From Halorubrum xinjiangense (GTDB lineage: Archaea > Halobacteriota > Halobacteria > Halobacteriales > Haloferacaceae), in the NCBI RefSeq assembly GCF_900102375.1, contig NZ_FNBO01000009.1, forward strand, positions 88,549 to 152,548: a DNA stretch of 64,000 nucleotides, in the 5' to 3' direction. Shown piece after piece: positions 19,072-53,090 of the stretch; the first letter of the stretch is position 1, and every line of letters starts with the position of its first letter. Position numbers and translations under genes: made by a program. The notes below the pieces were generated by a model. That model was given only the letters and a program-made list of their open reading frames with translations, had not been told where the DNA came from and ran no database searches.

Positions 19072-19375
19072 TTATAAATAGATCCGCGGTGGCGCGTGCC
19101 TGCGAGGCCGCATCGCGGCCGAGCAGCACGCGCGAGGGAGTCGGCCGGCCGGAGCGAAGCGGGGGCCGGCCGACGAGGCTGGGGAGGCGTGAGGTGCGGG
19201 GCTGTGCGGTCGGGGTGGGACTCAAAGGGGCAGCCGTGAGGAGGGCGCAGGCGATGTAAGCACTGGAAGGAGCGAACGAAGTGAGCGACTGAAGCGCGCA
19301 ACGAGCGTGCGCCCTCCTCACGGCTGGGGCTTTGGAGGTGTTCTCCGCCGATCCGTTTTCAGTCATTTATAAATA
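19072..19375 (+). ncRNA. Structured repeat element, copy 1 (candidate noncoding RNA)
   Basis: It fills the 488-base gap between hel308 and the methyltransferase gene. It opens with TTATAAATA (19072-19080), a TATA-like box, and closes with the same nine bases at 19367-19375. Hairpin A is near 19093-19133. Hairpin B has an exact 11-bp stem (19140-19150 with 19164-19174) and a GGAGCGAAGCGG loop. A 17-bp exact stem pairs 19232-19248 with 19309-19325, enclosed by TCAAAG (19222-19227) and CTTTGG (19330-19335). Invariant blocks such as GAGGCTGGGGAGG are shared with three other copies. I do not recognise the family. Confidence 0.7.
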
Positions 19376-19463
19376 TGTGGCTGTGTCTTCGGAGACGGTC
19401 GCCGCAGCAACGAATACTTATAAAAAGAGAAACCGGGCGACGACGATCGTACATGGGTATACG

Positions 19464-20141
19464 TCAGGGTGCCACGCCGACCGTCAACAGCGTCCCCCAC
19501 GTCCGGTAGCGGTCGACCATCGCCTCGCGTGTCTCGTACCCCTCAGTGGGAAACGCCGACGCGTCCGGAATCTCCACCTCCCGGTCCGGGATCGCGTCCT
19601 GCTCGGCGACGTACAGGCCCGCCTCGCGGAACGCCTCGCGGTACTCTCCGCGCGACCAGAGCGTCATGTCGACGGAGATGTGCTCCTGCCACGCGTGGGT
19701 CGTCTCGCTCTCCTCGAAGTAGTTGACGGCGCAGTAGAAGGTGCCGCCCGGCTTCAGCACGCGACGGACCTCTTCGAGCGTGTGGACCGGGTCGGCCGCG
19801 TAGTAGAACGCCTCCATCGAGAACACGTGGTCGAGCGAGTCGTCGGCGAACGGGAGCTCGTCGAAGTCGCCGACGAGGTAGCCGACCGCGTCATCGTCGG
19901 TGTACCCGCGGGCGTTGCGCGCCATCTCCGGGGCGCCGTCGAGGCCGTAGCCGCGCCCAATTCCCCGCTCGCGGAGCGCGCGGAGCGCGTAGCCGGAGCC
20001 GGTGCCTAAATCGAGGACGGCGTCGCCTTCCTCGGCCGGCATCCGCGCTAAGACGTGTTTCGCGGTGTGCCAGTGGCGGTCCTCCATGCCGCGGTCCTTC
20101 CCGCTCGCCGCCCACTCGTCGAACTCCTCGCGAACGCTCAT
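19464..20141 (-). CDS. Class I SAM-dependent methyltransferase (225 aa)
   Basis: The ATG at 20141 gives MSVREEFDEWAASGKDRGME; the longer open frame upstream is not needed. Motif I is VLDLGTGSGYALRAL, followed by GLDGAPEMARNARG and the post-motif block FSMEAFYYAADPVHTLEEVRRVLKPGGTFY. It is a Methyltransf_11-type small-molecule methyltransferase, close to UbiE/arsenite methyltransferase-like folds; the substrate is not evident. A T-rich tract (cttttt on the minus strand) about 45 bases after the stop may terminate it. Confidence 0.88.
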   Translation of the reverse strand: MSVREEFDEWAASGKDRGMEDRHWHTAKHVLARMPAEEGDAVLDLGTGSGYALRALRERGIGRGYGLDGAPEMARNARGYTDDDAVGYLVGDFDELPFADDSLDHVFSMEAFYYAADPVHTLEEVRRVLKPGGTFYCAVNYFEESETTHAWQEHISVDMTLWSRGEYREAFREAGLYVAEQDAIPDREVEIPDASAFPTEGYETREAMVDRYRTWGTLLTVGVAP

Positions 20142-20264
20142 ACGGGCCGCGAGGGGCGGGCGGGTGAAAATGCGTTCGGAGCGGGGCGGCGGCGAAGGCT
20201 CCCACCCGTCGGCGCCGACCGCGAAGCGGCGACGTTTTATTCGCGCCGGGCGCGTGGAGGAGGT

Positions 20265-20708
20265 ATGAAGCGGCCGAAGGGGCTCCGCCGTCCGACGTAC
20301 CGGCTGGCGGACTCCGCCCAGCAGGCCGTCGGGGGGTTCCTGCTCGCCGGGCCGTTCGTCGTCACCGAGGAGGTGTGGGTGCTGGCGGCCGGCATGCACT
20401 GGATCCAGGGCGTGGCGACCGCCGGGGTCGTCGCCCTGATCGGCTATGCCGCGCTCTATCGCGCCGACACGGACCGGGACCCGGACGGCGAACAGGAGAT
20501 CGCCGGCGTCCCCGCGCGGTTCCTCTCGCTGATGATCGTCGCCTTCGGGTCGGTGCTGCTGCTGGCGCTCCTCTTTGACGCGCCGGCCACGTTCCTCATC
20601 GATCAGGGAATCGCCGGGCGGGAGCTGTGGGAGACGACGCTCAAGGCCGTCGCCGTCAGCGCGGTGTTCAGCGTCGTCGGCGCGGCGACCGCCGACAGCG
20701 TGTTCTGA
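20265..20708 (+). CDS. DUF2391-like integral membrane protein (147 aa)
   Basis: The ATG at 20265 follows a purine-rich ggaggaggt. The protein begins MKRPKGLRRPTYRLADSAQQ and has about four hydrophobic segments, including AVGGFLLAGPFVVTEEVWVL, which resembles the DUF2391 (TIGR02587) membrane family. Function unknown. A TATA-like gttttatt lies about 25-30 bases upstream. Confidence 0.75.
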   Translation: MKRPKGLRRPTYRLADSAQQAVGGFLLAGPFVVTEEVWVLAAGMHWIQGVATAGVVALIGYAALYRADTDRDPDGEQEIAGVPARFLSLMIVAFGSVLLLALLFDAPATFLIDQGIAGRELWETTLKAVAVSAVFSVVGAATADSVF

Positions 20709-20743
20709 ACGCGACCGGTTCGTATCCCGCCTTCCGCGCCGGT

Positions 20744-21319
20744 TCACAGCACGACCGAGACGACCGCGAAGAGGATCAACACGCCGGCGATGTCACAGAG
20801 GTTCGTCACCACGGGGATCGTCGTGTCGTCGGGGTTGAGCCCGACGCGGTAGGAGACCTCGACGGCGGCGACGCTGGCGACGACGACGAGGACGGCGAGA
20901 CAGAGCCCGGAGACCAGAGAGATAAGCAGCACCCGGCCGAGCGCGAGCGACCCGCCGAGCGCGAGGCCGATCCCCCACGCGGCGATCCCCACCGCGCCGA
21001 AGACGGTCGCCGCGAGGGCGAACACCGCGCCCGCGTTCGCCCGGAGCGCGGGGTTCGAGGGGCTGAGCTCGTAGGTCCCCAGGTACAGCTGGGTGGTGAG
21101 CCGCGAGCAAGTGATCGACGCGAGGTTGCCGGCCGTGCCGATCTGGACGGGTACCAAGACGAGGAGCGCCGGGTACCGCAGAAGGACCGCCTCGTAGGTC
21201 TCAAGTACGGTCCCGGAGACGAGCTGAAGCACCGACAGCGCGGCCAGAAGCGGGATCATCGTCCGGACGATGCGCCATATCGACCACTCGTCGACGGCGG
21301 TCGACTGAGGGTCCGTCAC
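20744..21319 (-). CDS. MgtE-like divalent cation transporter half, second gene
   Basis: The GTG at 21319 overlaps the upstream gene's TGA (GTGA), which fixes the start and indicates translational coupling. The 191-residue protein has about five hydrophobic helices and the MgtE/SLC41 membrane-domain signatures PVQIGTAGNLASI and LNPDDTTIPVVTNLCD. The cytoplasmic N and CBS domains of MgtE are absent. Together with its neighbour it probably forms a two-subunit Mg2+ channel or transporter. Confidence 0.85.
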   Translation of the reverse strand: MTDPQSTAVDEWSIWRIVRTMIPLLAALSVLQLVSGTVLETYEAVLLRYPALLVLVPVQIGTAGNLASITCSRLTTQLYLGTYELSPSNPALRANAGAVFALAATVFGAVGIAAWGIGLALGGSLALGRVLLISLVSGLCLAVLVVVASVAAVEVSYRVGLNPDDTTIPVVTNLCDIAGVLILFAVVSVVL

Positions 21320-21888
21320 GACACCGCCCCCACGACGGCGACCCCGACGAGGAGGAAGAACACCCCGAACACGTCCCCGAGCGTCGTGACGACCGGCCCG
21401 ATGACGTTGTCGGGGTCGAGGCCGCGCCGGTAGCCGACGAAGATGACCGCGATCAGGACGGTGATCATCAGCACCGCCGAGAGGAACCCGGCGACGACCA
21501 TCACGCCGACCAGCTGGAAGAGGCTCCCGCCGTCGCCGAAGAGGACGAGCGTCGCGTAGGTGACGACCGCGATGAACACGGAGACGGTCATCCCGTTGAG
21601 GAAGGAGGCCACGACCGCGTTCGTGAGCCGGCGGTCGAGCCGGAACCGCGGCTCGATGATCCCCTGGTGGAGCCCCGTCGAGAGCCGGGCGCCGAGCGAG
21701 CCGTACACCCCCCCGCGGGTGGCGAGGAACGCAGGCAGAAGGAGGAGGAGGCCGGGGACCTCCGCGATGTTCGCGCGCATGGTGTCGGAGGCGAGTATCG
21801 TCCCTGCGAACAGCCCGGCGAGCAGACTGACGCCGATCACCGGAAGCGCCTGCCGGTAGATGTCGCGCGCGGAGTCGTGCCCGGGCAT
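21316..21888 (-). CDS. MgtE-like divalent cation transporter half, first gene
   Basis: The 190-residue protein starts at the ATG at 21888 (MPGHDSARDIYRQALPVIGV). It has the membrane-domain signatures PAFLATRGGVYGSLGARLST and LDPDNVIGPVVTTLGD, equivalent to those in the following gene but in diverged sequence. There is no CBS domain. Two membrane-only paralogues in tandem suggest a heterodimer replacing the homodimeric bacterial MgtE, and loss of the usual cytosolic Mg2+ gate. Mg2+ is the likely ion. Confidence 0.85.
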   Translation of the reverse strand: MPGHDSARDIYRQALPVIGVSLLAGLFAGTILASDTMRANIAEVPGLLLLLPAFLATRGGVYGSLGARLSTGLHQGIIEPRFRLDRRLTNAVVASFLNGMTVSVFIAVVTYATLVLFGDGGSLFQLVGVMVVAGFLSAVLMITVLIAVIFVGYRRGLDPDNVIGPVVTTLGDVFGVFFLLVGVAVVGAVS

Positions 21889-22096
21889 CGAACGCACCGA
21901 GGGCGGGCGGGGCAAAAAAACCGACCGGCGCGGGGACGGCCGGCGCACACCTATCGGGATCTCCAGACGAAACGGTGGTGGGTCGCGGCGAAGCGGGCGC
22001 GGCGGCCGCCGCGAGCGGCGATCGACCCGACGGGGTCGGTCGGTCTCGGAGCGACCCGTCCCGCATCGTTAAGTCGGTCGGGCGATTGCCGATCCC

Positions 22097-22675
22097 ATGG
22101 ACTACACGCTCGCCGTCGAGAACGGGCCGGAAACGATACCGGGCGGGACCGGGCTCCTCCTCGTCCACCCGAGCATCGGCGAGACGGACCGGATCGACAC
22201 GGACTTCTTAAAAACTGACACCGACGCCTTCCTCGTCGTCTCGACCCGGACCACCGCGCGCGAGGTCGAGCAGAAACTGGAGTACTACGACGTCGACGAG
22301 ACGAAGGCGACCATCCTCGACACGCTCTCCGTCGAGCGCGGCTACTCGCGGCGCACTGCTGACGACGTCTACTACGTCTCCGCGCCGGACGACCTCGACG
22401 GGGTCGTCGACCGCGTGGAGCGGTTCCTCACCGAGAGCGATGGGAAGCGGCGCGTCTCGGTCGACTCGCTCACCGAGATGGCCTACTACGCCGACGACGA
22501 CGCGGTGTACGAGGCGGCCGCCGAGATCCTCGACCTCCTCGATGAACACGACGCGGTCGGCATCTTCCACCTCTCCGAGGAGGTCCACGAGGTGGCGACG
22601 CTCGACCGGTTCCGCGACCTGTTCGACGGCGTCATCGACCTCGACGAGGACGGAAACGTCGTCGTCGACATCTGA
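22097..22675 (+). CDS. Conserved haloarchaeal protein, RecA/KaiC-like remnant fold (192 aa)
   Basis: MDYTLAVENGPETIPGGTGL opens a protein that resembles the core of RecA-superfamily proteins without a Walker A lysine motif: VHPSIGETDRIDTDF, DAFLVVSTRTTAREVEQKLE and a late DLDEDGNVVVDI. Such haloarchaeal families are annotated DUF7090 or RecA-like. Function unknown; nucleotide binding is doubtful because no GKT/S loop is visible. It converges on the gene at 22723. Confidence 0.7.
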   Translation: MDYTLAVENGPETIPGGTGLLLVHPSIGETDRIDTDFLKTDTDAFLVVSTRTTAREVEQKLEYYDVDETKATILDTLSVERGYSRRTADDVYYVSAPDDLDGVVDRVERFLTESDGKRRVSVDSLTEMAYYADDDAVYEAAAEILDLLDEHDAVGIFHLSEEVHEVATLDRFRDLFDGVIDLDEDGNVVVDI

Positions 22676-22722
22676 AACGGGGTTCCGCCGCGGGTGTCCT
22701 AGTTCTCGGGGAGGGTGCTCTG

Positions 22723-23640
22723 TCACTCCTCGTCGCCGACGAGCGCCGCGAACGTCTTCTCCGCCCACGCGACGGCGTAGGCCGCCCCTCGGTCTCGGTA
22801 GGCCGTGGTGTCGAGCGCGCCGTACGGCGCCGGGAGGTCGAGGTCGTGTTTCACCGCCGAGCAGGCGTACTCCGTCGCGCTCGGGAACTCCGTGTCGCCG
22901 CGCGCGACCTCGCCGGAGAGGTCGCCCAGCCGACCGGAGAGCCGCTCGCCGGCGTCGATCCACGCGTCGAACAGCCGAGGGTGCTCACCCTCCCACGAGG
23001 CGAACGCGTCTCGGGTGTGGAGCCCGACCCACGCGTCGAACAGCGCGTTCGCGACCTGGAAGACGTCGGTCGGGCCGAACCCGGTCGTCGATTCGCCCGT
23101 GTCCGGGTCCGGACGGCGGATCGCCGCGTCGAGGTCGCGGTAGCGGTCGCCGAAGAAGGGGAAGAACGACTCGGGGAGCCCGGGGGAACTGCCGCCGTTC
23201 GAGGCACCACCGTTCGACGCGCCGGAGTTCGCGGCGGCGGCGTCGCCCACGACGGCACTCGGCGCCGGCTCGCAGTCGATCTGGACCAGTCGCTCGGCGA
23301 CGAGGAAGGCGAGGAAGTCGTCCGGGGTCCCCTCCGCGCGCCGCTTGACGAGGACGGCCGACGGCTCGGTCTGCGTCGTCCGGACGACGGTCCCGTCGCC
23401 CGGTAACCCAATGGTGAACGCCGGCCCGGCGTGCTTCCGGAGCAGGTCCGGGACCGCCTCCGGGAGCCACTCGGCGGGGTACGACGCGGGGGCGAGCGCG
23501 TCGACGAAGAGCCCGAGATCCTCCGCGGCGGCCGGCGGGAGCGTCTCGAAGTCTGACTCGACGTCGAGGACGGGCGATCCCGGCGCGTAGCGGTCGCGGA
23601 CCGCCGCGAGGTCGTCGTCGAGCGGCCGGGTCGAGAACAT
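22723..23640 (-). CDS. Conserved haloarchaeal protein, unknown function (305 aa)
   Basis: The ATG at 23640 gives MFSTRPLDDDLAAVRDRYAP. The protein is soluble and acidic, with an Asn/Gly/Ser-rich linker around residues 150-165 (repeated SNGG units) that splits it in two. The C-terminal half contains ATEYACSAVKHDLDLPAPYG. I recognise no characterised domain. Its start codon overlaps the stop of the 29-residue gene upstream (TGATG), so the two are coupled. Confidence 0.7.
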   Translation of the reverse strand: MFSTRPLDDDLAAVRDRYAPGSPVLDVESDFETLPPAAAEDLGLFVDALAPASYPAEWLPEAVPDLLRKHAGPAFTIGLPGDGTVVRTTQTEPSAVLVKRRAEGTPDDFLAFLVAERLVQIDCEPAPSAVVGDAAAANSGASNGGASNGGSSPGLPESFFPFFGDRYRDLDAAIRRPDPDTGESTTGFGPTDVFQVANALFDAWVGLHTRDAFASWEGEHPRLFDAWIDAGERLSGRLGDLSGEVARGDTEFPSATEYACSAVKHDLDLPAPYGALDTTAYRDRGAAYAVAWAEKTFAALVGDEE

Positions 23641-23729
23641 CAGCCGAGGACGTACGAGAGGATGATGAGCACCGAGAGGACGGCCGAGATGCCGACCGTT
23701 CCGACCACGATCTTCGTTGATTTGGACAT
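23640..23729 (-). CDS. 29-residue membrane microprotein
   Basis: An ATG at 23729 opens a 30-codon frame reading MSKSTKIVVGTVGISAVLSV then LIILSYVLG. A basic N-terminus precedes one hydrophobic helix, a plausible single-pass peptide. The stop overlaps the start of the next gene as TGATG, typical of coupled haloarchaeal operons, which supports real translation. The promoter-like gttaaaat about 25 bases upstream fits. Function unknown. Confidence 0.6.
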   Translation of the reverse strand: MSKSTKIVVGTVGISAVLSVLIILSYVLG

Positions 23730-23818
23730 GCGCGTCCGTGCGTCCGCCGGTCGTTAAAATCATCCGGTCCGCGGCAGGCGTGCGGCGATTTTATGTCGTC
23801 CGGCGAGAGTGCGAAGGT

Positions 23819-24292
23819 ATGCGAGTTCGCGACGCGGTCGAGGCCGACGCCGCGGCCCTGGGGTCGATGACTGGCCGGCCCGAAGGCGTCGTCCGCGACA
23901 TGATCCACGACCGGTCGGTGCGCGTCGCGGTGACCGACGGAGCGGCCGACCGCGACGGCGCCGGCGACGAGAGAGAGTCGGCGAGTCGGAGCGCCGACGA
24001 CGGCGCCGACACCCCGGTCGACGCGGTCGACGGGTTCGTCGCGTTCGACGTGCGCGACGGCGTCGTCCACGTGACGAACGTCGAGGGGAGCTCCGACGCG
24101 GTCCGGCGGCTGTTCGAGGAGCCGGTTCGGTTCGGGACCCGGGAGGGGATGCCCGTCGAGGCTGTCCTCCCGACCGACGGGAGCGCCGGGAACGCGGCCG
24201 AAGCCGTCGGGTTCGCGGCGGTCGGCTCGGGGCCCCGGATCGACGGCGCGTCGACGACGCGGTACCGGTTCGACCCGGAAGAGAGCGACTGA
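23819..24292 (+). CDS. GNAT-like acetyltransferase (157 aa)
   Basis: It begins MRVRDAVEADAAALGSMTGR, the usual first strand and helix of a GNAT fold, then a low-complexity acidic insert (about residues 45-65), a central FDVRDGVVHVTNVEGSS strand pair and a C-terminal substrate/CoA part (AAEAVGFAAVGSGPRIDG). The pyrophosphate-binding Q/RxxGxG/A loop is weak, so activity is uncertain. A TATA-like gattttatg lies about 30 bases upstream. Confidence 0.65.
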   Translation: MRVRDAVEADAAALGSMTGRPEGVVRDMIHDRSVRVAVTDGAADRDGAGDERESASRSADDGADTPVDAVDGFVAFDVRDGVVHVTNVEGSSDAVRRLFEEPVRFGTREGMPVEAVLPTDGSAGNAAEAVGFAAVGSGPRIDGASTTRYRFDPEESD

Positions 24293-24497
24293 GGGTCGGA
24301 GCGGACTGAACGCCGATCTCGGTACTCTGGTGAGATCCGTCGCTGATGACGCATTCCGGCAGGAACGCCGAGTACAGCGCACATATCACTCGACAGACTA
24401 CTTCCACCGGAATGTGAATAATTAACACACTGTGTGAGAGAGGAAAAGCGGGTCGGTTGTCGTCGAGTTGCCGCTCAAGATCGGCGGGTGAGCAAAC

Positions 24498-24707
24498 ATG
24501 GGATCAAATCGCAGCTCCGAATCGGAGTTATCCGACACCCAGCAGGCACTCCTCCAGAGTGCCGTACAGAACTGTTATTTCGAAATACCACGGGGGATTT
24601 CGACAACCGAACTGGCCGAAGCGAACGGACTGTCAAGCCGGGAAGCGAGCGAGGAGATGACCCGCGCTCTCGGTATCGTCTTGCGTGACGCCGGCTTCGA
24701 TGGGTGA
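24498..24707 (+). CDS. Small HTH-10 (Bat-type) DNA-binding protein (69 aa)
   Basis: The protein is almost only the HTH-10 domain found at the C-terminus of bacterio-opsin-activator-like regulators: LSDTQQALLQSAVQNCYFEI, then RGISTTELAEANGLSSREAS. It lacks any PAS, GAF or other sensor part. Its region (24293-24790) is more AT-rich than the surroundings, and its stop TGA is the first three bases of an IS200/IS605-like terminal palindrome. It may therefore be passenger DNA or a gene fused to a transposon end. Regulatory target unknown. Confidence 0.75.
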   Translation: MGSNRSSESELSDTQQALLQSAVQNCYFEIPRGISTTELAEANGLSSREASEEMTRALGIVLRDAGFDG

Positions 24708-24740
24708 CATCCTCCCCGCCCTTCAGGGCGGGATTTTTCC
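24705..24740 (+). mobile_element. IS200/IS605-type terminal palindrome (orphan end)
   Basis: TGACATCCTCCCCGCCC continues into a loop TTCA and GGGCGGG (exact 7-bp stem, 24715-24721 with 24726-24732), then atttttcc. This closely resembles the right-end hairpin that follows tnpB genes in haloarchaea and cyanobacteria. No tnpA or tnpB is nearby, so it is a remnant or a non-autonomous element. It could equally serve as a transcription terminator. A second hairpin, TAGCGC-ttgag-GCGCTA, is at 24767-24783. Confidence 0.55.
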
Positions 24741-24798
24741 CTTGTGAATTCGGCGGGATCGAATTCTAGCGCTTGAGGCGCTAAAACAGACGTTCGAC

Positions 24799-25980
24799 TC
24801 AGTCGAACCGATCTTGAACGATTTCGAGCGCCTCCTCGCGGTCGTCCCAGTCGACGAACACCGCGACGGAGGTCGCGCTCGTGATCAGGTCGATGATGTT
24901 GATGCCGGCCTCCGCGATGGGCGCGATGATGTCCTGAATGACGCCCGACTGGTTGGGGAGCTCGCCGCCCGTGACGCGGATCACGGCGATGGGGTCGGCG
25001 ACGGTGACCGAGGAGAGCGCCTCGTCGGTGACGACCGTCTCGTGGAGCAGCGCCTCGGCGGTCTCCGCGACGTCGACGTCGACGTAGAAGGTGACCGAGT
25101 CCATCCCGGAGGCGACCGCGTCGATATTGATCTCCTCGGCGCGGAGCGCGTTCGTCAGCTCGGAGAGGATCCCCGGCCGGTTGCGGATCGCCCGGCCCGC
25201 GATGGTGAGACACGCCAGCGGCTCCTCGCGCATGTCGATCAGGCTCTCGAACTCGCCTTCGATCCGGGTGCCGCCCCGGAGCAGGTCGCCGTGCTGGTAG
25301 TGGACGACCCGGACCGCGAGGTCCTCGTCCTTGTACGAGAGCGCGGAGGGCGCGACCACCTCGGCGCCGCGGAAGGAGAGGTTCCGCAGCTCGTCGACGG
25401 TGATCTGCCCGACGTTGCGCGCCCCCTCGACAACCCGCGGGTCGCCCGTCATCACGCCCTCGACGTCGGTAACGATCACGACCTCGTCGGCGTCCATGTA
25501 GTTGCCGAGCATGACCGCGGTCGTGTCCGACCCGCCACGCCCGAGCGTGGTGACGTTGCCGTCGTGGTCCTCGGCGAGGAATCCCGTGATGATCGGGACG
25601 ACGCCGTCCATGTCGGCGGCGATCTCCCGCGCCCGGCGCTTCGTCTCCGCGACGTCGACCTCGCCGCGCTCGTCCGTGATGACCGGCCAGTCGGGGTGCC
25701 CGGGTTCGAGGAAGACCGCGTCGACGTCGCGGACGGATAGCGCGGCCTTCAGCATACGGACGCTGGTGCGCTCGCCCATCGAGACGATCTCCGCGCGGTC
25801 GGCGTCGTCCGTCTCGAAGGTGATGTCGTCGAGGAGATCGTCCGTTGTCGACCCCATCGCGCTCGCGACGACCGCGATCTCGTGGCCGGCCGCGACCGCG
25901 CTCGCCACCGAGTCGGCCGCGCGCTCGATCCGGTCCCCGCTTCCGAGGCTCGTGCCGCCGAACTTCGCGACTACGCGCAT
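24799..25980 (-). CDS. lysC: Aspartate kinase
   Basis: A 393-residue enzyme phosphorylating aspartate, the first step to threonine, methionine and lysine. The ATG at 25980 gives MRVVAKFGGTSLGSGDRIER with the KFGGTS signature. The kinase core includes GRGGSDTTAVMLGNYMDADE and TDVEGVMTGDPR. Two ACT regulatory domains follow (NRPGILSELTNALRAEEINI and NQSGVIQDIIAPIAEAGINI), so feedback inhibition is likely. Length is normal. No TATA box is obvious close to the start. Confidence 0.94.
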   Translation of the reverse strand: MRVVAKFGGTSLGSGDRIERAADSVASAVAAGHEIAVVASAMGSTTDDLLDDITFETDDADRAEIVSMGERTSVRMLKAALSVRDVDAVFLEPGHPDWPVITDERGEVDVAETKRRAREIAADMDGVVPIITGFLAEDHDGNVTTLGRGGSDTTAVMLGNYMDADEVVIVTDVEGVMTGDPRVVEGARNVGQITVDELRNLSFRGAEVVAPSALSYKDEDLAVRVVHYQHGDLLRGGTRIEGEFESLIDMREEPLACLTIAGRAIRNRPGILSELTNALRAEEINIDAVASGMDSVTFYVDVDVAETAEALLHETVVTDEALSSVTVADPIAVIRVTGGELPNQSGVIQDIIAPIAEAGINIIDLITSATSVAVFVDWDDREEALEIVQDRFD

Positions 25981-26335
25981 GCGGCTACCCCGTTGCGAGT
26001 CCGGGACGGTCGGTCGCTGGCGGACGGTCGCGCCGGTCGCTTTCCGGCGGGTTGTCGGCGGCGAGCGGGCGAAACGGCGCGGTCCGGACCGAGGCCGGAG
26101 TCCCGGCTCGGTCGACGGCGATCGGTAAACATGCGACTCCGTAGCGGAGGAAGCCGGATAACAGTATCTTCTTCGACAAGGGTCGCCCGAATCACAGAAC
26201 CGCACGAAGTGGCGGCCGCGAGGGGATGAAAACGGAACGAACGATCACCGAAGTGAGAGATCGCGGGCGCGAGAAGAAAAAAACGACGCCACGCTCGCGT
26301 CACCGAGCGGGCGTTACGGACCGGGGAGGACGGCG
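25981..26335. other. 355-base intergenic stretch without a gene
   Basis: Between oapC and the aspartate kinase gene, both on the minus strand. Frames here have poor composition and no plausible product. An A-rich tract (gaagaaaaaaacg, near 26272) reads on the minus strand as a T-rich tract shortly after the oapC stop and may terminate that transcript. The remainder presumably holds the promoter of the kinase gene. Confidence 0.5.
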
Positions 26336-28092: not shown

Positions 28093-28286
28093 CCTGGCCT
28101 CCAATCCGTGTGGTTTACCCGAACACCGCGGTCGTTTCGCGACGCCGTTCGATCCGAGCGCTCGACGCCCGTTCGGGGAATTACGGTAGCCTCCACGCCG
28201 CGGTCACTTAAGAACTGCGTCAGACATCGCCGATCCGGAGCGTCGGCGCCGGACGAACCCGAAATGCGGAAGTGGGGTAGTTCGAG

Positions 28287-29810: not shown

Positions 29811-29841
29811 ATCCGTGAGTGAGTCGGGCGCATAATAAAGT

Positions 29842-30897: not shown

Positions 30898-30900
30898 ACT

Positions 30901-31320
30901 ATTTAAATCGATCCGTGCGGTGCGGTGGCGCGTGCCTCCGAGTGGCCGCCGCAGGCGGCCGCGAGGAGCACGCGCGAGGGAGTCGGCGGTCCGGAGCGAA
31001 GCGGAGGACCGCCGACGAGGCTGGGGAGGCGTGAGGTGCGGTTGCTGTGCGGGGTGGGACTCAAAGGGGCAGGCGCGAGGCCGCCGTAGGCGACGTAAGT
31101 ACCGCAGGGAGGGAGCGCCAGCGACCGACTGAGGAACGCAGCGAGCGTACGGCGGCCTCGCGGCTGGGGCTTTGGAGGTGTTTGTGGTCGATCTACTGTC
31201 AGCAACTTATAAGCGAGCAACTGGGGCTTTGGAGGTGTTCGTCGCCGATCCGGTATCAGCCATTTATAACGGGTGACTGAGGACTTTGAAGGATTCGCTA
31301 TGCCGGCTCTATTTATAAAC
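30901..31320 (+). ncRNA. Structured repeat element, copy 2, with amplified 3' tail
   Basis: It starts at an atttaaat TATA-like box four bases after the TatD-like gene's stop and fills the 441-base gap. Hairpin A is near 30929-30974. Hairpin B has an exact 11-bp stem (30982-30992 with 31006-31016) around GGAGCGAAGCGG. A 17-bp stem with one mismatch pairs 31072-31088 with 31148-31164, enclosed by TCAAAG (31061-31066) and CTTTGG (31170-31175). The stems differ in sequence from copy 1 yet still pair. The 3' tail is repeated (see 31164-31320). Confidence 0.7.
31164..31320 (+). repeat. Three tandem copies of the RNA element's 3' tail module (56-57 bp)
   Basis: Modules start at 31164, 31221 and 31277. 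Each has CTGGGGCTTTGGAGGTGTT (degenerate in the third: ctgaggactttgaaggatt), then a variable part with a CGATC-like core, then TCAGC-like bases and a closing TTATAA or TTTATAA box. Copy 1 carries one such module at 19324-19375. The tail is thus a separable unit. Confidence 0.75.
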
Positions 31321-43255: not shown

Positions 43256-43293
43256 CTCGACCGTCGAGCCGGCGGCTGTGCCGTTCGAGCGCG

Positions 43294-44414: not shown

Positions 44415-44446
44415 CGGATCACCCTCGGCTCGCGGGTCACTCTCAT

Positions 44447-45052: not shown

Positions 45053-45145
45053 CTAGGCGGGCCTACGGGCGGCGGGGTTTAGGGCGTTTCTCTCGGCGGG
45101 TCCGCCGCCCCGCCGCGTCTCGCCGGCGAGTTCCCCGTCGTCAAG

Positions 45146-46060: not shown

Positions 46061-46218
46061 ACCGGACGAGGGACCCGGGGGCACTTCTAGCGATCGGTCC
46101 GCGACCCTCCCTCCAGCGCTCGTGACGGCCCTCCCTCCAGCGCTCGTGACGACCGCAGCCCCGGCTAGGAGCACCCGTCCGGGCCGGGGCTTATGGTCGC
46201 GCCGCCCGTGGGGACGGT

Positions 46219-47163: not shown

Positions 47164-47840
47164 GCCGCGAGTACGGGGAGACGTGGGTGTACGAGAGCCT
47201 CGTCGGCGGCATTCCGGGCCTCGGGATCTCGCGGACGCTTGCGGTCGCGCTCCAGTTCGCCATCTTCGAGGTGGGCGTGGTGGGGCTCGGCTGGTACTAC
47301 GGGACGTGGGACGCCGTGGCGGCCGGGACGGTGGCGGTCGTCGTCGCGGCGGTCGGCAGCGTCGAGATGCACCGGCTGGGCGCGAAGAACCGGCTGCTCG
47401 GGACCCCGCCGGAACACAAGCGGCTGCTGTTCGGGTCGAGCATCGAGATCGTGTTGGGCGTGCTGGCGTTCATCGCGCTGGTGACGTACCTCTTCGCGTG
47501 GGACGCGGCCGCGGGGCCGACGCTCATCGACCGGCTGTTCGGCCCGGAGCCGCCGCTCCCCGTCGTCTACCTCACCCTGCTCGTCCTCTGGGACCTCACG
47601 TACCGCATCGGTACCTCCTGGTGGAGCGCCGTTGTCGCGCTGTGGCGCGCGGTCCACGTCGACCTCCCGCCCGACGAGCGCGCGACGGTCAGGCGGCTCG
47701 ACGCCGAGAACATCGGCTTCTCCGCCGTCCAGCTCGCCCTCGTCCCGTTCCTGCTCACGGAGCCCGTGCTGCTCGGCGCGGTGGTCGGGCACGTGATCGC
47801 GGTCGCGGTCGTCTGTTCGGCCGCGATCTGGCTCACGTGA
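47160..47840 (+). CDS. Multi-pass membrane protein (226 aa)
   Basis: The GTG start at 47160 overlaps the SDR gene's TGA. After MSREYGETWVYESLVGGIPG there are six or so hydrophobic segments, with a conserved-looking VEMHRLGAKNRLLGTPPEHK loop between the second and third, and TYRIGTSWWSAVVALWRAVH further on. Haloarchaeal family of unknown function. Probably works with the SDR protein, judging only by coupling. Confidence 0.75.
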   Translation: MSREYGETWVYESLVGGIPGLGISRTLAVALQFAIFEVGVVGLGWYYGTWDAVAAGTVAVVVAAVGSVEMHRLGAKNRLLGTPPEHKRLLFGSSIEIVLGVLAFIALVTYLFAWDAAAGPTLIDRLFGPEPPLPVVYLTLLVLWDLTYRIGTSWWSAVVALWRAVHVDLPPDERATVRRLDAENIGFSAVQLALVPFLLTEPVLLGAVVGHVIAVAVVCSAAIWLT

Positions 47841-47960
47841 GCCTCCGGCTCCGTTCGGCTCCGTCGCCGTCGGGACCGTACCCGCTGCTATCGGGAACAA
47901 GAGCTGCCGCTATCGGCGTTCGAGAACGGAATTAAAAGACGCGTCGTCGCCGCGGCCGCG

Positions 47961-48134
47961 TCACTTCCCCTGGAGCTCTTCGAACTTGTCGAGGAGTGCC
48001 TCCGCGGAGTCGCCCGAGTCGTAGGTCAGTGACCCGGAGTACTCGGGGCGCTCCGCGTCGAAGTCCGCGTCGACTTCGCTGGTCTTCTTCTCGCGACGCT
48101 CGTGTTCGGCCTCGTCATAGGCACCCATTGACAT
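47961..48134 (-). CDS. DUF5786 family protein (57 aa)
   Basis: The ATG at 48134 gives MSMGAYDEAEHERREKKTSE, then YDSGDSAEALLDKFEELQGK, the full length of the DUF5786 family. An alternative longer frame from 48215 is rejected because it would cross the promoter. An operator-like palindrome lies at 48165-48180. Function unknown. It is divergent to a DUF5784 gene. Confidence 0.85.
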   Translation of the reverse strand: MSMGAYDEAEHERREKKTSEVDADFDAERPEYSGSLTYDSGDSAEALLDKFEELQGK

Positions 48135-48164
48135 GGTACACCCACACTTGGCCGTTTCCTGTAA

Positions 48165-48180
48165 TATACCTGTCGGTAAA
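48165..48180. promoter_or_regulatory. Operator-like palindrome (TATACC-TGTC-GGTAAA)
   Basis: It matches the TTTACC-N4-GGTAAA operator at 11 of 12 arm positions, with the same spacer length. It lies 31 bases upstream of the DUF5786 start and overlaps a TATA-like tatatta on the minus strand. It is far from the TetR cluster, so the match may be chance. Confidence 0.4.
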
Positions 48181-48253
48181 CGTATCATAAACCGTGAACG
48201 TTCGGTCCCGTCCACCGGAATGAATTAACCCCGCGGTGTGATACCGAACGCAC

Positions 48254-49303
48254 GTGGCACAACCGCTCCGCTTCAGGCGCTCGCCCGGCCGCTGGACCGC
48301 GGACCGCGTCCGGTCGCAGATCGGCCGCCCGCTCGACGAGAACCTCGGAGCGACCGCCGGCGACCCGTGGTTCGCGCCGCCGCCGGACTACGAGGCGCGT
48401 CGGTTCGACATGGCGGACGGGTCGTTCGCGCTGTTCTGCTGGACCGACGACGACGCCGACCCTCCGGCGGGCGCCGACGGCGGCCCGGTCGGGTACTGGC
48501 TGGGCAACACCGAGACGCCGAGCGAGCTCTGGCGGACGGACAAGTACGGGTTCGACGAGGCGCCGTACCCGGTCTCGCGGTGGGCGCAGCGGGAGCTGCT
48601 CGCCGGGCTCCACGACGACGAGCCGTGGCTGGCCGACTACCCGCACGTCTCGTGGTACTTCCTGCCCGTGTTCTGCTCGAAGGACGGCGCGGAGACGAGC
48701 CGGGCGTTCTTCCGCGACCACGCGGCCGGGTTCCCGGACGCGACCCGCGAGGCGGGGACCGGCTTCGTCGAGGAGACGCTCCGGCCGGGGACGCTCGACG
48801 ACTACCGCGAGGTCATGGCTGGGAAGCTCGGCACCTCCGCATCGCGCGATCTCGTCCGGATGAGCGCGGCGATAGCCGAGTTCACCGCGGCCCGGATCCT
48901 CACGGACGCGGGGTACGAGGTCACCCCGGAGATCGAGGTGACGACGGGCCACTCGCTCGACTACCGCGCGACGGACCCCGAGACGGGCGCCGGACACCTC
49001 GTCGAGGTGACGCGCCCGCAGCCGACGGCGGGGCGCTCCGCGAACGACCCGGTCGCCGCCGTCCGCGACACCGCCGAGACGAAGACGAGCGGCCAGCTTG
49101 CGGCCCACGCCGGCGGCGTCACGCTGTTCGTCGACTGCTCGTCGTTCCCCGCCGACGAGTGGGCCGCCGTGCGCGCGGCCGAGCCCGCGGTCCGTCACAA
49201 GCCCGCGGTCGTGTACCGCGCCGAGCCGGACGGGTCGATCGAGGGGTACCGGAAGGGGTCGGTCCCGATCGACCTCTCCGAAGTCGTCGCCGGGCTCCCG
49301 TAG
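48254..49303 (+). CDS. DUF5784 family protein (349 aa)
   Basis: The GTG at 48254 gives MAQPLRFRRSPGRWTADRVR. The second half (EFTAARILTDAGYEVTPEIE, then DYRATDPETGAGHLVEVTRP) looks like a restriction-endonuclease-fold core with an acidic residue and an E-x-T/K-like element, but I cannot confirm catalysis. The family is haloarchaeal. A TATA-like gaattaac lies about 30 bases before the start. Function unknown. Confidence 0.78.
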   Translation: MAQPLRFRRSPGRWTADRVRSQIGRPLDENLGATAGDPWFAPPPDYEARRFDMADGSFALFCWTDDDADPPAGADGGPVGYWLGNTETPSELWRTDKYGFDEAPYPVSRWAQRELLAGLHDDEPWLADYPHVSWYFLPVFCSKDGAETSRAFFRDHAAGFPDATREAGTGFVEETLRPGTLDDYREVMAGKLGTSASRDLVRMSAAIAEFTAARILTDAGYEVTPEIEVTTGHSLDYRATDPETGAGHLVEVTRPQPTAGRSANDPVAAVRDTAETKTSGQLAAHAGGVTLFVDCSSFPADEWAAVRAAEPAVRHKPAVVYRAEPDGSIEGYRKGSVPIDLSEVVAGLP

Positions 49304-49439
49304 CCTCGCGGCTCGACGGTGCCGTCGACGGTGCCCGCGAGGCTCTCCGGCGACGTGCGCGCGTTCGTTCTCAACGTATCGGCGGCGCTCCGCGGTCGAG
49401 GGTCGAAAAAGGGGTACGGACTCCGTGCGGTTCGGCGCG

Positions 49440-49724
49440 TCAGAACGAGACCGGCGAGGGCCCGTCTTCCGCGTCGGTGGTCGGGTCGCGGTCCGAGTAG
49501 AACCGGCGACCAACGCCGCGGTGACAGACGCCGGCCCGGAGCGTGGTGAACACGTCGTCCGCGTCCTCGAACGTCTGGTCGCCGAACCGCTCTAAGACGT
49601 CGCCGAGCCGCTCGGACCCGTTCGCGAGCTCTACGGTCGCGTTGCCGTGAGCCGCGATGATCTCCTCAGAGGTGGTCGGGTACTGGTGCCGTTCGAGTCG
49701 GTCGTCGACGCCGTTCAAGCGCAT
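49440..49724 (-). CDS. DUF5789 family protein (94 aa)
   Basis: The ATG at 49724 gives MRLNGVDDRLERHQYPTTSE, then NATVELANGSERLGDVLERF, and the usual GRRFYSDRDPT and PVSF-like C-terminus of the DUF5789 family. A longer in-frame ORF upstream is not supported. The TATA box is likely in the cgatataagg repeats on the minus strand near 49790-49807 or in a nearer AT-rich stretch. Function unknown. Confidence 0.83.
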   Translation of the reverse strand: MRLNGVDDRLERHQYPTTSEEIIAAHGNATVELANGSERLGDVLERFGDQTFEDADDVFTTLRAGVCHRGVGRRFYSDRDPTTDAEDGPSPVSF

Positions 49725-49871
49725 CAACAGATGAAAACCGCCGATGGTTCTTAATGATTGTCCATGTACGACCTTAGTCGGGGGGGATACCTTATATCGC
49801 CTTATATCGCTCTCACTCCGGTGGTTCCCGGAACCACCGCGGCTTAGTGGCGGGCGCAATTACTCGCCTCT

Positions 49872-50789
49872 ATGCCCGCTGATTCCGCCGACTCCGCTGA
49901 ATCTTCCGATTCCGCCGATCCCCCCGACTCCAGCGATCCGGTCGTCGCCGACCTCCACGCCCACACGGACGTCTCCGACGGCACGCTGGCGCTCGAGGAG
50001 GTGCCCGCGGCCGCCCGCGAGGCGGGCGTCGACTGGGTCGCCGTCACCGACCACGACCGGATCCACCCCGGGCTCGACGCGCCGGTCGTCGAGCGCGACG
50101 GCGTCCGGATCGTCCGGGGGATCGAGCTCCGCGTCGACGCCGGCTTCGAGCGCCTCGACCTCCTCGGCTACGGCGTCGAACACACCGACGCGCTCGACGC
50201 CGAGATCGAACGCCTCCAGCGAGACCGCCGCGAGCGCGGCGCCGCCATCCTCGACGCGGTCGAGGGGCGACTCGGGGTCGACCTCGACGTGGAGCCGCGC
50301 GCCGGGCTGGGACGGCCGCACATCGCGCGAGCGATCGACGAGTCGGACGCCCCCTACGACTATGCCGGGGCGTTCGACGAGCTGATCGGAAACGACGGCC
50401 CCTGCTACGTCGCGCGTGACGTGACGCCGCTCGACGAGGGGATCGACCTGCTCGCGGACGCCTGCGCGCTCGTCGGGCTCGCGCACCCGTTCCGGTACGA
50501 GCGCGTCGACGAGGCGCTCGACGTCGCCCGCGAGTCGGCCTCGATCGGGGCGATCGAGCGCTTCTACCCGTACGGCCGCCCCGTCGACGACGCACGGATC
50601 GACCGCGTCGCCGCCGAGAGCGACCTACTCAGGACGGGCGGGACGGACGCGCACGAGCGGACGCTCGGGGTCGCGGGCCTGACGGCGTCGGCGTTCGAAC
50701 CCGTCCGCGAACGACTGCCCGAACCGGTCTCGGTCGAGGAGTTCCCGGCCGCGGACTCCCCCGGTGCGGCCCCCGACGAACAGCATTAA
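49872..50789 (+). CDS. PHP-domain phosphoesterase (305 aa)
   Basis: After a 22-residue Ala/Asp/Ser repeat comes VADLHAHTDVSDGTLALEEV (HxH of the PHP domain), DWVAVTDHDRIHPGLDAPVV, IVRGIELRV, LVGLAHPFRYERVDEAL and a final RTGGTDAHERTLGVAGL. This is a full set of metal-binding motifs. Members hydrolyse phosphate esters such as AMP-like 3',5'-bisphosphates or histidinol phosphate; the substrate is unknown. Confidence 0.9.
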   Translation: MPADSADSAESSDSADPPDSSDPVVADLHAHTDVSDGTLALEEVPAAAREAGVDWVAVTDHDRIHPGLDAPVVERDGVRIVRGIELRVDAGFERLDLLGYGVEHTDALDAEIERLQRDRRERGAAILDAVEGRLGVDLDVEPRAGLGRPHIARAIDESDAPYDYAGAFDELIGNDGPCYVARDVTPLDEGIDLLADACALVGLAHPFRYERVDEALDVARESASIGAIERFYPYGRPVDDARIDRVAAESDLLRTGGTDAHERTLGVAGLTASAFEPVRERLPEPVSVEEFPAADSPGAAPDEQH

Positions 50790-50814
50790 GCCCGCGCCGG
50801 ACGGAGTAGAGTAT

Positions 50815-50979
50815 ATGCGGTGTCACTACTGCGACCGGGAGGCCACGTACGAGGCGGAGCAGGGCGGCGTGGTCGTCGGGCTCTGCGAGTCCCACTTCAA
50901 ACAGCGCGTCGAGGAGCTCGCCGAGTCGGACGAGCTCGCGGCGCTCCGCGACCGGATCGACATCGAGTCCTCCGAGTAG
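50815..50979 (+). CDS. Small zinc-finger-like protein, DUF6757-like (54 aa)
   Basis: The ATG at 50815 gives MRCHYCDREATYEAEQGGVV, then LCESHFKQRVEELAESDE. CxxC plus CxxH forms a plausible zinc site. The ribosome binding site is not evident; a TATA-like cattaag lies about 30 bases upstream, suggesting a leaderless transcript. 76 bases upstream of hemB. Function unknown. Confidence 0.78.
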   Translation: MRCHYCDREATYEAEQGGVVVGLCESHFKQRVEELAESDELAALRDRIDIESSE

Positions 50980-51055
50980 TCGCGGCGGCCCCCTTCTGCC
51001 GAAGCGCCGCGACCGAGACGAACGGTAAAAGGCCGCGCGGGGCCAACCCGTCGGT

Positions 51056-52036
51056 ATGGACCTCACGGACCGGCCTCGCCGCCTCCGGACCGACGGCGTT
51101 CGCCCGCTCGTCGCCGAGACAGACCTCTCCGCGTCGGACCTCGTCGCGCCCGTCTTCGTCGACGCGACGACCGACGAGCGCGTGCCCATCGAGACGATGC
51201 CGGGCCACGAGCGCGTCCCGGTCGACGAGGCGACCGACCGCGTCGCCGAGATCCGCGAGACCGGCGTCGAGGCCGTGATCCTCTTCGGCGTCCCCGAGTC
51301 GAAGGACGCGTCCGGGAGCCGGGCGTACGCCGACGACGGCGTCGTCCAGCGCGCAATCCGGCGGATTTCCGCGGAGACCGACGTCACCGTGATCGGCGAC
51401 GTCTGCCTCTGTGAGTACACCGACCACGGCCACTGCGGCGTCATCGAGGAGACCGCCGAGTCGGACCCGACGCTCACCGTCAAGAACGACGAGACGCTCG
51501 ACCTGCTCGCGCGCACCGCGGTCTCGCAGGCCGAGGCGGGCGCGGACGTGGTCGCTCCCTCGGCGATGAGTGACGGGCAGGTGGGAGCGATCCGCGAGGC
51601 GCTCGACGCCGCAGGGCACGAGGACGTCGCGATCCTGAGCTACGCCGCGAAGTACGAGTCCGCCTTCTACGGCCCCTTCCGCGACGCGGCCGACGGCGCG
51701 CCCGCGTTCGGCGACCGCCGGCACTACCAGATGGACCCGGCGAACCGCCGCGAGGCGCTTCGCGAGGCCCGCCTCGACGCCGAGCAGGGCGCCGACGTGT
51801 TGATGGTGAAACCCGGGCTCCCGTACCTCGACATCGTGGGTGATCTCCGGCGGGAGTTCGACCGGCCCATCGCCGCGTACAACGTCTCCGGCGAGTACGC
51901 GATGCTCCACGCCGCCGCGGAGAAGGGGTGGCTCGAGCTCGAGGCGACCGCGCTGGAGTCGCTCACGGCGCTCAAACGCGCGGGCGCGGACCTCATCATC
52001 ACGTACTTCGCCGAGGATGTTGCCGAACACTTATAA
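51056..52036 (+). CDS. hemB: Porphobilinogen synthase (delta-aminolevulinic acid dehydratase)
   Basis: A 326-residue enzyme joining two 5-aminolevulinates to porphobilinogen for heme and cobamide synthesis. The catalytic zinc cysteines Cys117, Cys119 and Cys127 lie in GDVCLCEYTDHGHCG. The Schiff-base lysines are Lys199 in LSYAAKYES and the later one in VLMVKPGLPYLD. Length is normal. Its stop codon TAA lies inside the TTATAAATA box that opens repeat element copy 3. Confidence 0.96.
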   Translation: MDLTDRPRRLRTDGVRPLVAETDLSASDLVAPVFVDATTDERVPIETMPGHERVPVDEATDRVAEIRETGVEAVILFGVPESKDASGSRAYADDGVVQRAIRRISAETDVTVIGDVCLCEYTDHGHCGVIEETAESDPTLTVKNDETLDLLARTAVSQAEAGADVVAPSAMSDGQVGAIREALDAAGHEDVAILSYAAKYESAFYGPFRDAADGAPAFGDRRHYQMDPANRREALREARLDAEQGADVLMVKPGLPYLDIVGDLRREFDRPIAAYNVSGEYAMLHAAAEKGWLELEATALESLTALKRAGADLIITYFAEDVAEHL

Positions 52037-52347
52037 ATAGAATCGGGCGGGAGTCGACGCGCTTCTTCAACTGTCCACCATGGCGCGCGCCTCCGAGCGC
52101 CCGTCGGGCGCGAGGAGCGCGTGCGAGGGAGTCAGTCGCCGGAGCGAAGCGGAGGCGACTGACGAGGCTGGGGAGGTGTGAGGTGCGGTGCGGGGCGGGA
52201 ATCGAAGGGGCGGACGGGAGGCGGGCGCAGGCGACGTAAGCACCGCAGCGAGCGGAGCGAGCGAGGAGCGCAACGAGCGTGCGCCCGCCTCCCGGCCGGG
52301 GCTTCGGTGGCGTTCGCCCGGGTCGATACACCAGCTCTGATTTATAA
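52031..52347 (+). ncRNA. Structured repeat element, copy 3
   Basis: It fills the 337-base gap after hemB and its opening TTATAAATA (52031-52039) includes the hemB stop. Hairpin A is near 52083-52124. Hairpin B is a 10-bp exact stem (52131-52140 with 52154-52163) with the GGAGCGAAGCGG loop. The 17-bp stem pairs 52212-52228 with 52281-52297 (one mismatch). The outer helix is TCGAAG (52202-52207) with CTTCGG (52302-52307), a compensatory A-T to G-C change relative to the other copies. It ends in TTTATAA (52341-52347). Confidence 0.7.
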
Positions 52348-52373
52348 GCAACCAATCGAGCGACCGGATCCGC

Positions 52374-52616
52374 TCACACCACCTGTTCGCCGTCGTCGTC
52401 GTACACCTCGATGGCGTCGACCGGGCAGACCCGGGCCGCGAACTTCGCGTCGAACTCCTCGCCGTCGGGCACCTCGACGACGAACAGGTCCTCCTTCTCC
52501 TCGCTGCTCCCGTTCAAATCGGCCTTCCCGTCGTTCAGGTTCTTCTCGAAGGCGTCCCACTCGGCGACGCACTGGTACATCCCGACGCAGGTGTCGCGGT
52601 CAAACTCGACGTACAT
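52374..52616 (-). CDS. Ferredoxin with three visible cluster cysteines (80 aa)
   Basis: The protein begins MYVEFDRDTCVGMYQCVAEW and ends with FAARVCPVDAIEVYDDDGEQ. Cysteines lie at residues 10, 16 and 64; the usual central Cys of CxxCxxC is Met13. This pattern (Cx5C ... CP) occurs in [3Fe-4S] or labile [4Fe-4S] ferredoxins such as those serving cytochromes P450. The segment between holds an acidic N/D/E-rich insert. A single-gene unit between repeat copies 3 and 4. Confidence 0.88.
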   Translation of the reverse strand: MYVEFDRDTCVGMYQCVAEWDAFEKNLNDGKADLNGSSEEKEDLFVVEVPDGEEFDAKFAARVCPVDAIEVYDDDGEQVV

Positions 52617-52680
52617 AGCACCTGGTTAGACGAGACGGTACAAAGCCATGGCGACGAGAGGTGTGAGATTCCAGCGACTC

Positions 52681-53090
52681 CGAAACCGGATCGGCAGTGA
52701 CCTCCTCCAAAGCCCCAGCCACGAGGGCGACGCACGCTCGCTGCGCGCTTCACTCGCTCGCGGTGCTCGCTCTTTCCAGTGCTTACGTCGTCATCAGAAC
52801 GCCTCGCGTTCTGATTGGCTCACGAGAGCTCTGCTCTCGTGAACGCCTGCGTCGCCCTCGCGACTGCCCCTTTGAGTCCCACCCCGACCGCACAGCACCG
52901 CCGGAAGACGGTCCTGCTCGCTCACTGCGTTCGCTGCGCGGGCTGCGACTTCCGTGCTCCCGCTCGCGTTGCTCGCGGGACCGCAGCCTCACGCCTCCCC
53001 AGCCTCGTCGCTGGCGCCGCGGGCGCCAGCGACTCCCTCGCGCGTGCGACTCACAGCCTGACGGCTGTTCGTCGGCACGCGCCACCGCGA
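52681..53090 (-). ncRNA. Structured repeat element, copy 4 (opposite strand, enlarged)
   Basis: It fills most of the 557-base gap between the ferredoxin gene and the gene at 53174. In minus-strand terms hairpin B is a 12-bp exact stem (53033-53022 with 53018-53007) with a short loop. The long stem is 17 bp with two G-U pairs (52864-52848 with 52734-52718). The outer helix is TCAAAG (52875-52870) with CTTTGG (52712-52707). Extra hairpins are inserted, for example TCACGAGAGC-aga-GCTCTCGTGA. G-U rather than C-A pairs only on this strand support minus-strand RNA. A 243-residue ORF across it is spurious. Confidence 0.7.

What the first reader, a model, noticed from the sequence alone, without database searches (positions are those of the whole stretch)
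19072..53090. A dispersed family of structured RNA-like elements with compensatory base changes (four copies)
Four intergenic elements (19072-19375, 30901-31320, 52031-52347 plus strand; 52681-53090 minus strand) share short invariant blocks (GAGGCTGGGGAGG, GGCGAYGTAAG, GGGACTCAAAGGGG, CTGGGGCTTTGGAGG). Their long helices differ in sequence but remain paired in each copy. Hairpin B is GTCGGCCGGCC, GTCGGCGGTCC, GTCAGTCGCC and GTCGCTGGCGCC on the 5' side, each with an exact complement. The 17-bp stem is rewritten in each copy. The outer TCAAAG/CTTTGG helix becomes TCGAAG/CTTCGG in copy 3, a true double change. In copy 4 the pairing works with G-U only on the minus strand. This is strong in-window evidence for selection on RNA structure. 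I do not recognise the family.
Basis: seen in the sequence. Interest (0 to 1): 0.88.

Follow-up and report, generated by a model that had tools for sequence, protein, structure and literature searches.

The report
Dispersed one-strand-folding haloarchaeal repeat elements
This salt-loving archaeon carries about 150 scattered copies of a hairpin-forming element, with relatives in many other haloarchaea, whose folded shape is kept while its letters change; it likely works as folded single-stranded DNA rather than as a transcribed RNA gene.

Summary
In detail: the four elements exist, pair as described, and match no Rfam family. They are part of something larger. A covariance model of the 3' domain gives 149 matches in this genome (149 of 150 scored candidates, a lower bound), 140 in a congener's single contig, and matches in 199 of 293 genomes of the order. 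A tree-based covariation test on 134 copies from other haloarchaea gives 14 significant column pairs, all nested in one hairpin. In the main stem, G-T mismatches outnumber A-C 66 to 14, so the fold is favoured on one strand, in single-stranded form. That it is RNA is not shown: solo copies outside the genus lack TATA-like hexamers at promoter distance (2 of 97), orientation relative to genes is inconsistent, a third of copies have an inverted partner close upstream, and the 3'-domain tips are mostly GNA triloops (85 of 140; GNRA/UNCG 0), a motif known for hyperstable DNA hairpins. Best reading: a large REP/REPIN-like repeat acting through folded single-stranded DNA (0.45); main rival: an RNA family (0.3). 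No partner enzyme, insertion junction or transcript was found.

The parts
19072..19372 (+). Copy 1, full-length element with flanking TTATAA boxes (19072-19077 and 19367-19372)
19092..19133 (+). Copy 1, 5' domain: P1 helix (19092-19099 with 19126-19133) around hairpin A with CGAG/CGAG tandem G-A motif
   Evidence: covariation of the hairpin-A base pairs
19140..19174 (+). Copy 1, hairpin B (arms 19140-19150 and 19164-19174, GCGAAGC tip)
19175..19187 (+). Copy 1, conserved block GAGGCTGGGGAGG
19217..19338 (+). Copy 1, 3' domain: GGGACTCAAAGGGGC, long stem S1, conserved inner motif, apical GNA hairpin, GGGGCTTTGGAGG
   Evidence: model R1 match
30902..31212 (+). Copy 2, full-length element from TTTAAA box to first tail TTATAA
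31213..31269 (+). Copy 2, second tandem tail unit ending in TTATAA
52031..52347 (+). Copy 3, full-length element between the hemB-like gene and the ferredoxin-like gene; TTATAA at 52031-52036 overlaps the stop of the upstream gene
   Evidence: gene names are my reading, not a domain search
52681..53095 (-). Copy 4, full-length element on the minus strand with extra inserts
52793..52842 (-). Copy 4, two palindromic hairpin inserts inside the 3' domain
52893..52987 (-). Copy 4, insert at the junction of the two domains (approximate ends); a similar insert is in L093

Best explanation
The four elements are copies of one dispersed intergenic repeat family whose hairpin fold is preserved with one strand favoured, and which most likely acts as folded single-stranded DNA, like an unusually large archaeal REP/REPIN, rather than as a transcribed RNA gene. 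Shown: the fold, its covariation, the strand preference, the copy number, the spread over haloarchaeal genera, and persistence at some sites. Inferred: when one strand is exposed (replication, repair, or transposition by a strand-specific enzyme), the plus strand folds into the 3' hairpin (outer helix, G-rich internal loop, long stem, conserved inner motif, GNA-capped tip) and is bound by a protein. That binding would have spread the family and would keep copies intact, while recombination between copies swaps hairpin versions. The binding protein or enzyme is unknown.
For: Covariation: 14 nested pairs. Strand preference in stem S1, disjoint sets: G-T 30 vs A-C 9 (genus, p 0.001) and 36 vs 5 (class, p 8e-7). 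No TATA-like hexamer at -50..-36 in 95 of 97 solo class copies; 58 of 175 class copies have an inverted partner within 150 nt upstream, 43 of them with a 25-35 nt spacer. Orientation relative to genes inconsistent between sets. 3'-domain tips: GNA triloops 85, other triloops 40, GNYA 5, GNRA 0, UNCG 0 of 140; GNA/GNNA mini-hairpin DNA is described as extraordinarily stable (PMC4686876, passages). G-U share of S1 pairs 2.0-2.7% against 7.7% in 16S helices. Copies with the inner loop inverted between the arms show DNA-level recombination. Site persistence: 9 of 14 comparable slots filled in a congener, all in the same orientation.
Against: No mobilising enzyme: none of 30 Y1-transposase loci (99 kb) holds a copy, and three congeners have no Y1 hit. 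No target duplication and no readable insertion junction. The strand bias and the conserved unpaired motifs fit RNA equally well; in the genus set 11 of the 30 G-T cells are at one position. In one search hairpin B (5 vs 2) and P1 (10 vs 3) show no significant bias, and GNA tips are a minority in hairpin B (18 of 73) and hairpin A (13 of 42). Many Halorubrum copies do have a TTATAA box upstream, and class copies have a weak AT-rich bump at about -44 to -37 and a preferred A at -13 and C at -11.
Confidence: 0.45

Rival explanations
1. A multi-copy family of structured non-coding RNAs: each copy would be transcribed, in Halorubrum from the upstream TTATAA box, and the RNA would act in trans, probably bound to a protein.
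For: Covariation and G-U-type strand bias; conserved internal motifs; TTATAA upstream of many Halorubrum copies; weak AT-rich bump and preferred A at -13 in class copies.
Against: The usual TATA-to-start spacing (recalled, about 25 nt) would place the start inside P1. TATA-like hexamers at promoter distance are missing in 95 of 97 solo class copies. Inverted pairs 25-35 nt apart leave little room for two promoters. GNA tips rather than GNRA/UNCG; low G-U share.
Confidence: 0.3
2. A cis-acting element of transcripts (terminator or UTR structure) that is read through from neighbouring genes.
For: In the class set, copies between two same-direction genes face the same way 36 times and the other way 18 times; in the genus set 24 of 60 placed copies lie between convergent genes, against 33 of 159 gaps over 100 bp of all kinds.
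Against: The two sets show different preferences; 48 of 103 class copies and 23 of 60 genus copies have no same-direction gene upstream. Flanking genes are of mixed families.
Confidence: 0.1
3. A double-stranded DNA or cruciform landmark (nucleoid or supercoiling site), with arms kept matched by template switching rather than by selection on a single strand.
For: Spread over the contigs without clustering; near-perfect arms; inner-loop inversions between arms.
Against: Such models predict equal G-T and A-C mismatches; observed 66 vs 14 in S1. They do not explain the conserved unpaired motifs.
Confidence: 0.1

Closest known systems
REP / REPIN / BIME repeats of bacteria (PMC3733652, passages; PMC12306157, passages; PMC3116915 and PMC2817692, listings only)
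   Same: Dispersed, intergenic, more than 100 per genome in Halorubrum, hairpin-forming, single and as inverted pairs with a set spacer; REP transposases act on single-stranded REP DNA (PMC3733652, passage).
   Different: 120-300 nt with several helices and conserved inner motifs instead of 20-50 nt; no GTAG or CGTC foot in the consensus; no Y1/RAYT gene beside copies in 30 loci; neither paper's main text holds a word starting with Halo.
PATEs and SMRs of Haloquadratum (PMC3119063, passages)
   Same: Haloarchaeal, non-coding, multi-copy, palindromic; PATEs and SMRs leave no target duplication.
   Different: PATEs share ends with IS605-type transposons and show strain-specific insertions; neither could be shown here. 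Their sequences were not compared.
sotRNA / omega RNA of haloarchaeal IS200/IS605 (RF02656, RF02657; PMC12558985, passages)
   Same: Structured, haloarchaeal, linked to mobile DNA.
   Different: No Rfam match on the elements; TnpB is not among the 25 families listed (of 105 matched) for 81 flanking genes.

Membership tests
REP/REPIN | More than about 100 dispersed intergenic copies per genome | tested here: met
   149 matches in the own genome and 140 in G027; 60 of 73 genus copies placed between called genes, 8 inside an ORF call, 5 at an edge
REP/REPIN | Short (20-50 nt) palindrome with a GTAG or CGTC foot | tested here: not met
   Consensus; the 3' domain alone is about 120 nt and has no such foot
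REP/REPIN | Inverted pairs with a set spacer | tested here: met
   58 of 175 class copies have an inverted partner upstream; 43 with a 25-35 nt spacer. In the genus set this was not counted
REP/REPIN | Associated tyrosine (Y1/HUH) transposase gene flanked by copies | tested here: not met
   No copy in 30 loci (99 kb) around Y1_Tnp genes; no Y1_Tnp in G002, G004, G005, which carry the family
PATE / IS605-derived element | Insertion polymorphism with defined ends and no target duplication | tested here: inconclusive
   5 of 14 comparable slots lack a detectable copy, but in the three aligned the whole spacer differs; no duplication seen
PATE / IS605-derived element | End sequences shared with an IS605-type transposon | not tested
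   No PATE or IS605 end sequences were fetched
Known Rfam RNA family | Score above the curated threshold | tested here: not met
   window; four copies, E<=5
Structured non-coding RNA | Covariation in a structure-blind alignment beyond a phylogenetic null | tested here: met
   14 pairs; does not separate RNA from single-stranded DNA
Structured non-coding RNA | Conserved promoter at transcription distance | tested here: not met
   2 of 97 solo class copies have a TATA-like hexamer at -50..-36; a weak AT-rich bump exists; Halorubrum boxes lie too close to the fold
Structured non-coding RNA | Detected transcript | not testable with these tools
   No RNA-seq reads are held

The most novel reading that the evidence does not exclude
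A haloarchaea-wide family of natural single-stranded-DNA structures: a roughly 120-nt plus-strand hairpin capped by a GNA mini-hairpin, with a conserved protein-docking core and a G-rich internal loop, multiplied to about 150 copies in Halorubrum and used by the cell as a dispersed ssDNA landmark for replication, repair or gene transfer, with its own unknown binding protein.
Probability: 0.25. Interest if true: 0.88.

Novelty: new variant of a known kind. Interest (0 to 1): 0.7.

Why it matters
A conserved structured element occurring about every 20 kb in this genome, and found in most sampled genera of its order, has no Rfam entry. If it acts as folded single-stranded DNA it would be an archaeal counterpart of REP/REPIN repeats with far richer structure, and a handle on ssDNA-binding machinery at molar salt. 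If it is RNA, it is an abundant unannotated archaeal RNA family. One strand-specific RNA-seq or pull-down experiment would separate the two.

Tried and rejected
Rfam, also at permissive thresholds: nothing on the elements; the sot0042 match in L005 (1834-2032, minus) lies beside a copy, not on it. Virus carriage: no match with one exact 20-base pattern in IMG/VR and none with two queries in the phage records. RAYT/REPtron link: not found. Target-site duplication at TTATAA: same-copy similarity 10.0 of 31 against 9.6 between copies, rejected. Cis-regulation of one gene class: flanking genes are mixed; tRNA-intron endonuclease appears in 3 of 81 and these are one orthologous site. An idea that the tail mimics the complement of the 16S 3' end was not tested and was dropped because the tail letters vary. 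A possible G-quadruplex from the conserved G tracts was considered and not tested. Promoter inside head-to-head spacers: none seen in those printed. Folding energy: the plus strand beats the minus strand in 30 of 30 copies with RNA and with DNA parameters, so it does not discriminate. Paper searches that showed no description of the family: (listings; passages read only where cited; most subscription papers are not held).

Limits. One search scored 40 of 229 candidates; one search stopped at 150 scored; one search scored 11 per genome with stricter filters, and weak hits may be only the simple GAGCGAA-type apical hairpin; a few matches are partial, and two in G027 overlap on opposite strands. 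The 12 genomes were picked because they had hits. One search's genus and class sets overlapped through loose anchors; one search repeats the S1 test on disjoint sets and replaces its S1 numbers. Sequences failing a minimum-pairing filter were dropped: 3 of 122 and 30 of 178; 4 of 47 (hairpin B) and 30 of 42 (hairpin A). In one search one copy with an inverted loop was dropped. One search's 100 matches include a few that may not be elements. Genes were called by GC3, not by an annotation program. Copies are related and recombine, so p-values overstate independence.

Full report
What is there. The window lies in a 3.26-Mb archaeal genome; all 34 same-genus genomes searched carry the element. Each full copy has a 5' domain (helix GCGCGYGC/GCRCGCGC around hairpin A, which has a CGAG/CGAG tandem G-A motif at its base, then hairpin B and GAGGCTGGGGAGG) and a 3' domain (GGGACTCAAAGGGGC, a long stem, a conserved inner motif and an apical hairpin, GGGGCTTTGGAGG), followed by a tail that ends in TTATAA. 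The tail is repeated in tandem in several copies.

How many and where. A covariance model of the 3' domain (R1, 46 sequences) gives 149 matches among 150 scored candidates in the own genome at E<=0.01 and 140 of 150 at E<=0.001 in G027, a single-contig congener. At E<=1e-4 it matches 199 of 293 genomes and 66 of 87 genera of the order, with at most 11 candidates scored per genome. Twelve genomes with hits, scored more deeply, hold 4-74 copies at E<=1e-6. Named hosts include Haloarcula, Natrinema, Natronococcus, Halobaculum, Halorussus, Haladaptatus and Haloglomus. Outside the genus, 97 of 117 solo class copies have no 5'-domain motif CTGGGGAGG in the 90 nt upstream, and 20 have it; loci of G134, G092 and G058 show the 5' domain. 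An exact 20-base pattern finds nothing in IMG/VR and two queries find nothing in phage records. Plasmids hold few: 2 records match copy 1 and 32 match a class copy.

Is structure under selection? For 134 class copies aligned without structure information, a test against alignments re-evolved on the tree gives 14 pairs at E<0.05, all nested in one hairpin from the outer helix to the apical hairpin. In 66 full-length genus copies 10 pairs pass: 9 canonical ones in the 3' stem, its inner and apical helices and hairpin A, and one non-canonical neighbour of a hairpin-A pair; none in hairpin B or P1. At one site kept between species (L126, L127 which equals L164 Natrinema mahii, L178 Natrinema limicola, L185 Haloterrigena sp. 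H1, L241), flanks are 80-90% identical and elements 72-85%, and the stem is rewritten while pairing is kept. The downstream gene there is a tRNA-intron endonuclease in the three loci tested. The four window copies by themselves are weaker evidence than they look: hairpin B versions recur in different slots, and G017 carries the same hairpin A in two slots, which I read as exchange of whole hairpins between copies.

One strand or both? In stem S1, on disjoint sets, G-T mismatches outnumber A-C 30 to 9 (genus, 119 of 122 distinct sequences) and 36 to 5 (class, 148 of 178), pooled 66 to 14. A cruciform or template-switch origin predicts equality, so the plus strand is the one that folds, as RNA or as single-stranded DNA. 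One position holds 11 of the 30 genus cells. Hairpin B (5 vs 2) and P1 (10 vs 3) are not significant on their own; hairpin A is 7 vs 0 in 12 of 42 usable sequences.

RNA or DNA? For DNA: only 2 of 97 solo class copies have a TATA-like hexamer at -50..-36; 58 of 175 class copies have an inverted partner upstream, 43 of them 25-35 nt away. Orientation relative to genes differs between the sets: class 36/30/19/18 for >E>>, <E>>, >E><, <E>< (103 placed of 118; 12 inside an ORF call, 3 at an edge), genus 13/8/24/15 (60 placed of 73; 8 inside, 5 at an edge). 3'-domain tips are GNA in 85, other triloops in 40, GNYA in 5 and GNRA or UNCG in 0 of 140, and a library paper describes GNA/GNNA mini-hairpins with G-C pairs as extraordinarily stable DNA (PMC4686876, passages). 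The G-U share in S1 is 2.0-2.7% against 7.7% in 16S helices of this organism (16 G-U, 191 Watson-Crick and 2 A-C of 219 pairs). For RNA: the same G-T bias, the conserved unpaired motifs, TTATAA upstream of many Halorubrum copies, and in class copies a weak AT-rich bump at about -44 to -37 with a preferred A at -13. Against the DNA argument: GNA tips are a minority in hairpins A and B (13 of 42, 18 of 73). Plus-strand folding beats minus-strand in 30 of 30 copies with both parameter sets. None of this is decisive; I put folded ssDNA at 0.45 and an RNA gene family at 0.3.

Movement. Of 41 own sites, 14 could be placed with both flanks in 875 kb of congener G016 (21 were not in the sample, 6 had one flank): 9 filled, all in the same orientation, and 5 without a detectable copy. 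In the three empty sites aligned, the whole spacer between the genes differs, so no insertion point can be read. The slot after the hemB-like gene is filled in several congeners and empty in G008 and G018. The 40 scored hits in the own genome are at most 89% identical to copy 1, itself aside, so no recent burst involves that copy. No copy lies in 30 loci around Y1 transposase genes, and three congeners lack a Y1 hit. The family looks old and largely inherited in place, with gain or loss and inter-copy exchange; active transposition is not shown.

Verdict. A real, abundant, widely distributed structured repeat family, not in Rfam, whose single-strand fold is selected. It works like a large REP/REPIN in several respects but fails two REP hallmarks (short tagged palindrome, associated Y1 transposase), so I do not file it as a REP.

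Noticed in passing
L070:2634-2768 (+), L093:2766-2900 (+), L005 hairpin B: The inner loop is inverted between the two stem arms, as if recombination or template switching had flipped it.
   Followed up: partly
window 31213-31269; many loci: The 3' tail (about 57 bp, GCGAGCGGCTGGGGCTTTGG...TTATAA) is tandemly repeated after the element in several copies.
   Followed up: partly
window 52793-52842; L030; L063, L066, L072, L073: Short double-palindrome inserts of different letters but similar two-hairpin architecture sit inside elements, like a second nested repeat family.
   Followed up: no
window about 52893-52987 and L093: A similar insert of about 90 bp lies at the junction of the two domains in copy 4 and in a copy at the slot-2 position of G013.
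   Followed up: no
L126, L127, L164, L178, L185, L241: A 3'-domain copy is kept at one orthologous site across Natrinema, Haloterrigena and relatives; the downstream gene is a tRNA-intron endonuclease in the three loci tested.
   Followed up: partly
L098 (congener G015, slot 2): A copy has lost its 3' domain, apparently by deletion between the two GGCTGGGG repeats.
   Followed up: no
window 58797-63963: A complete rRNA operon (16S, tRNA, 23S, 5S) lies downstream of copy 4.
   Followed up: no
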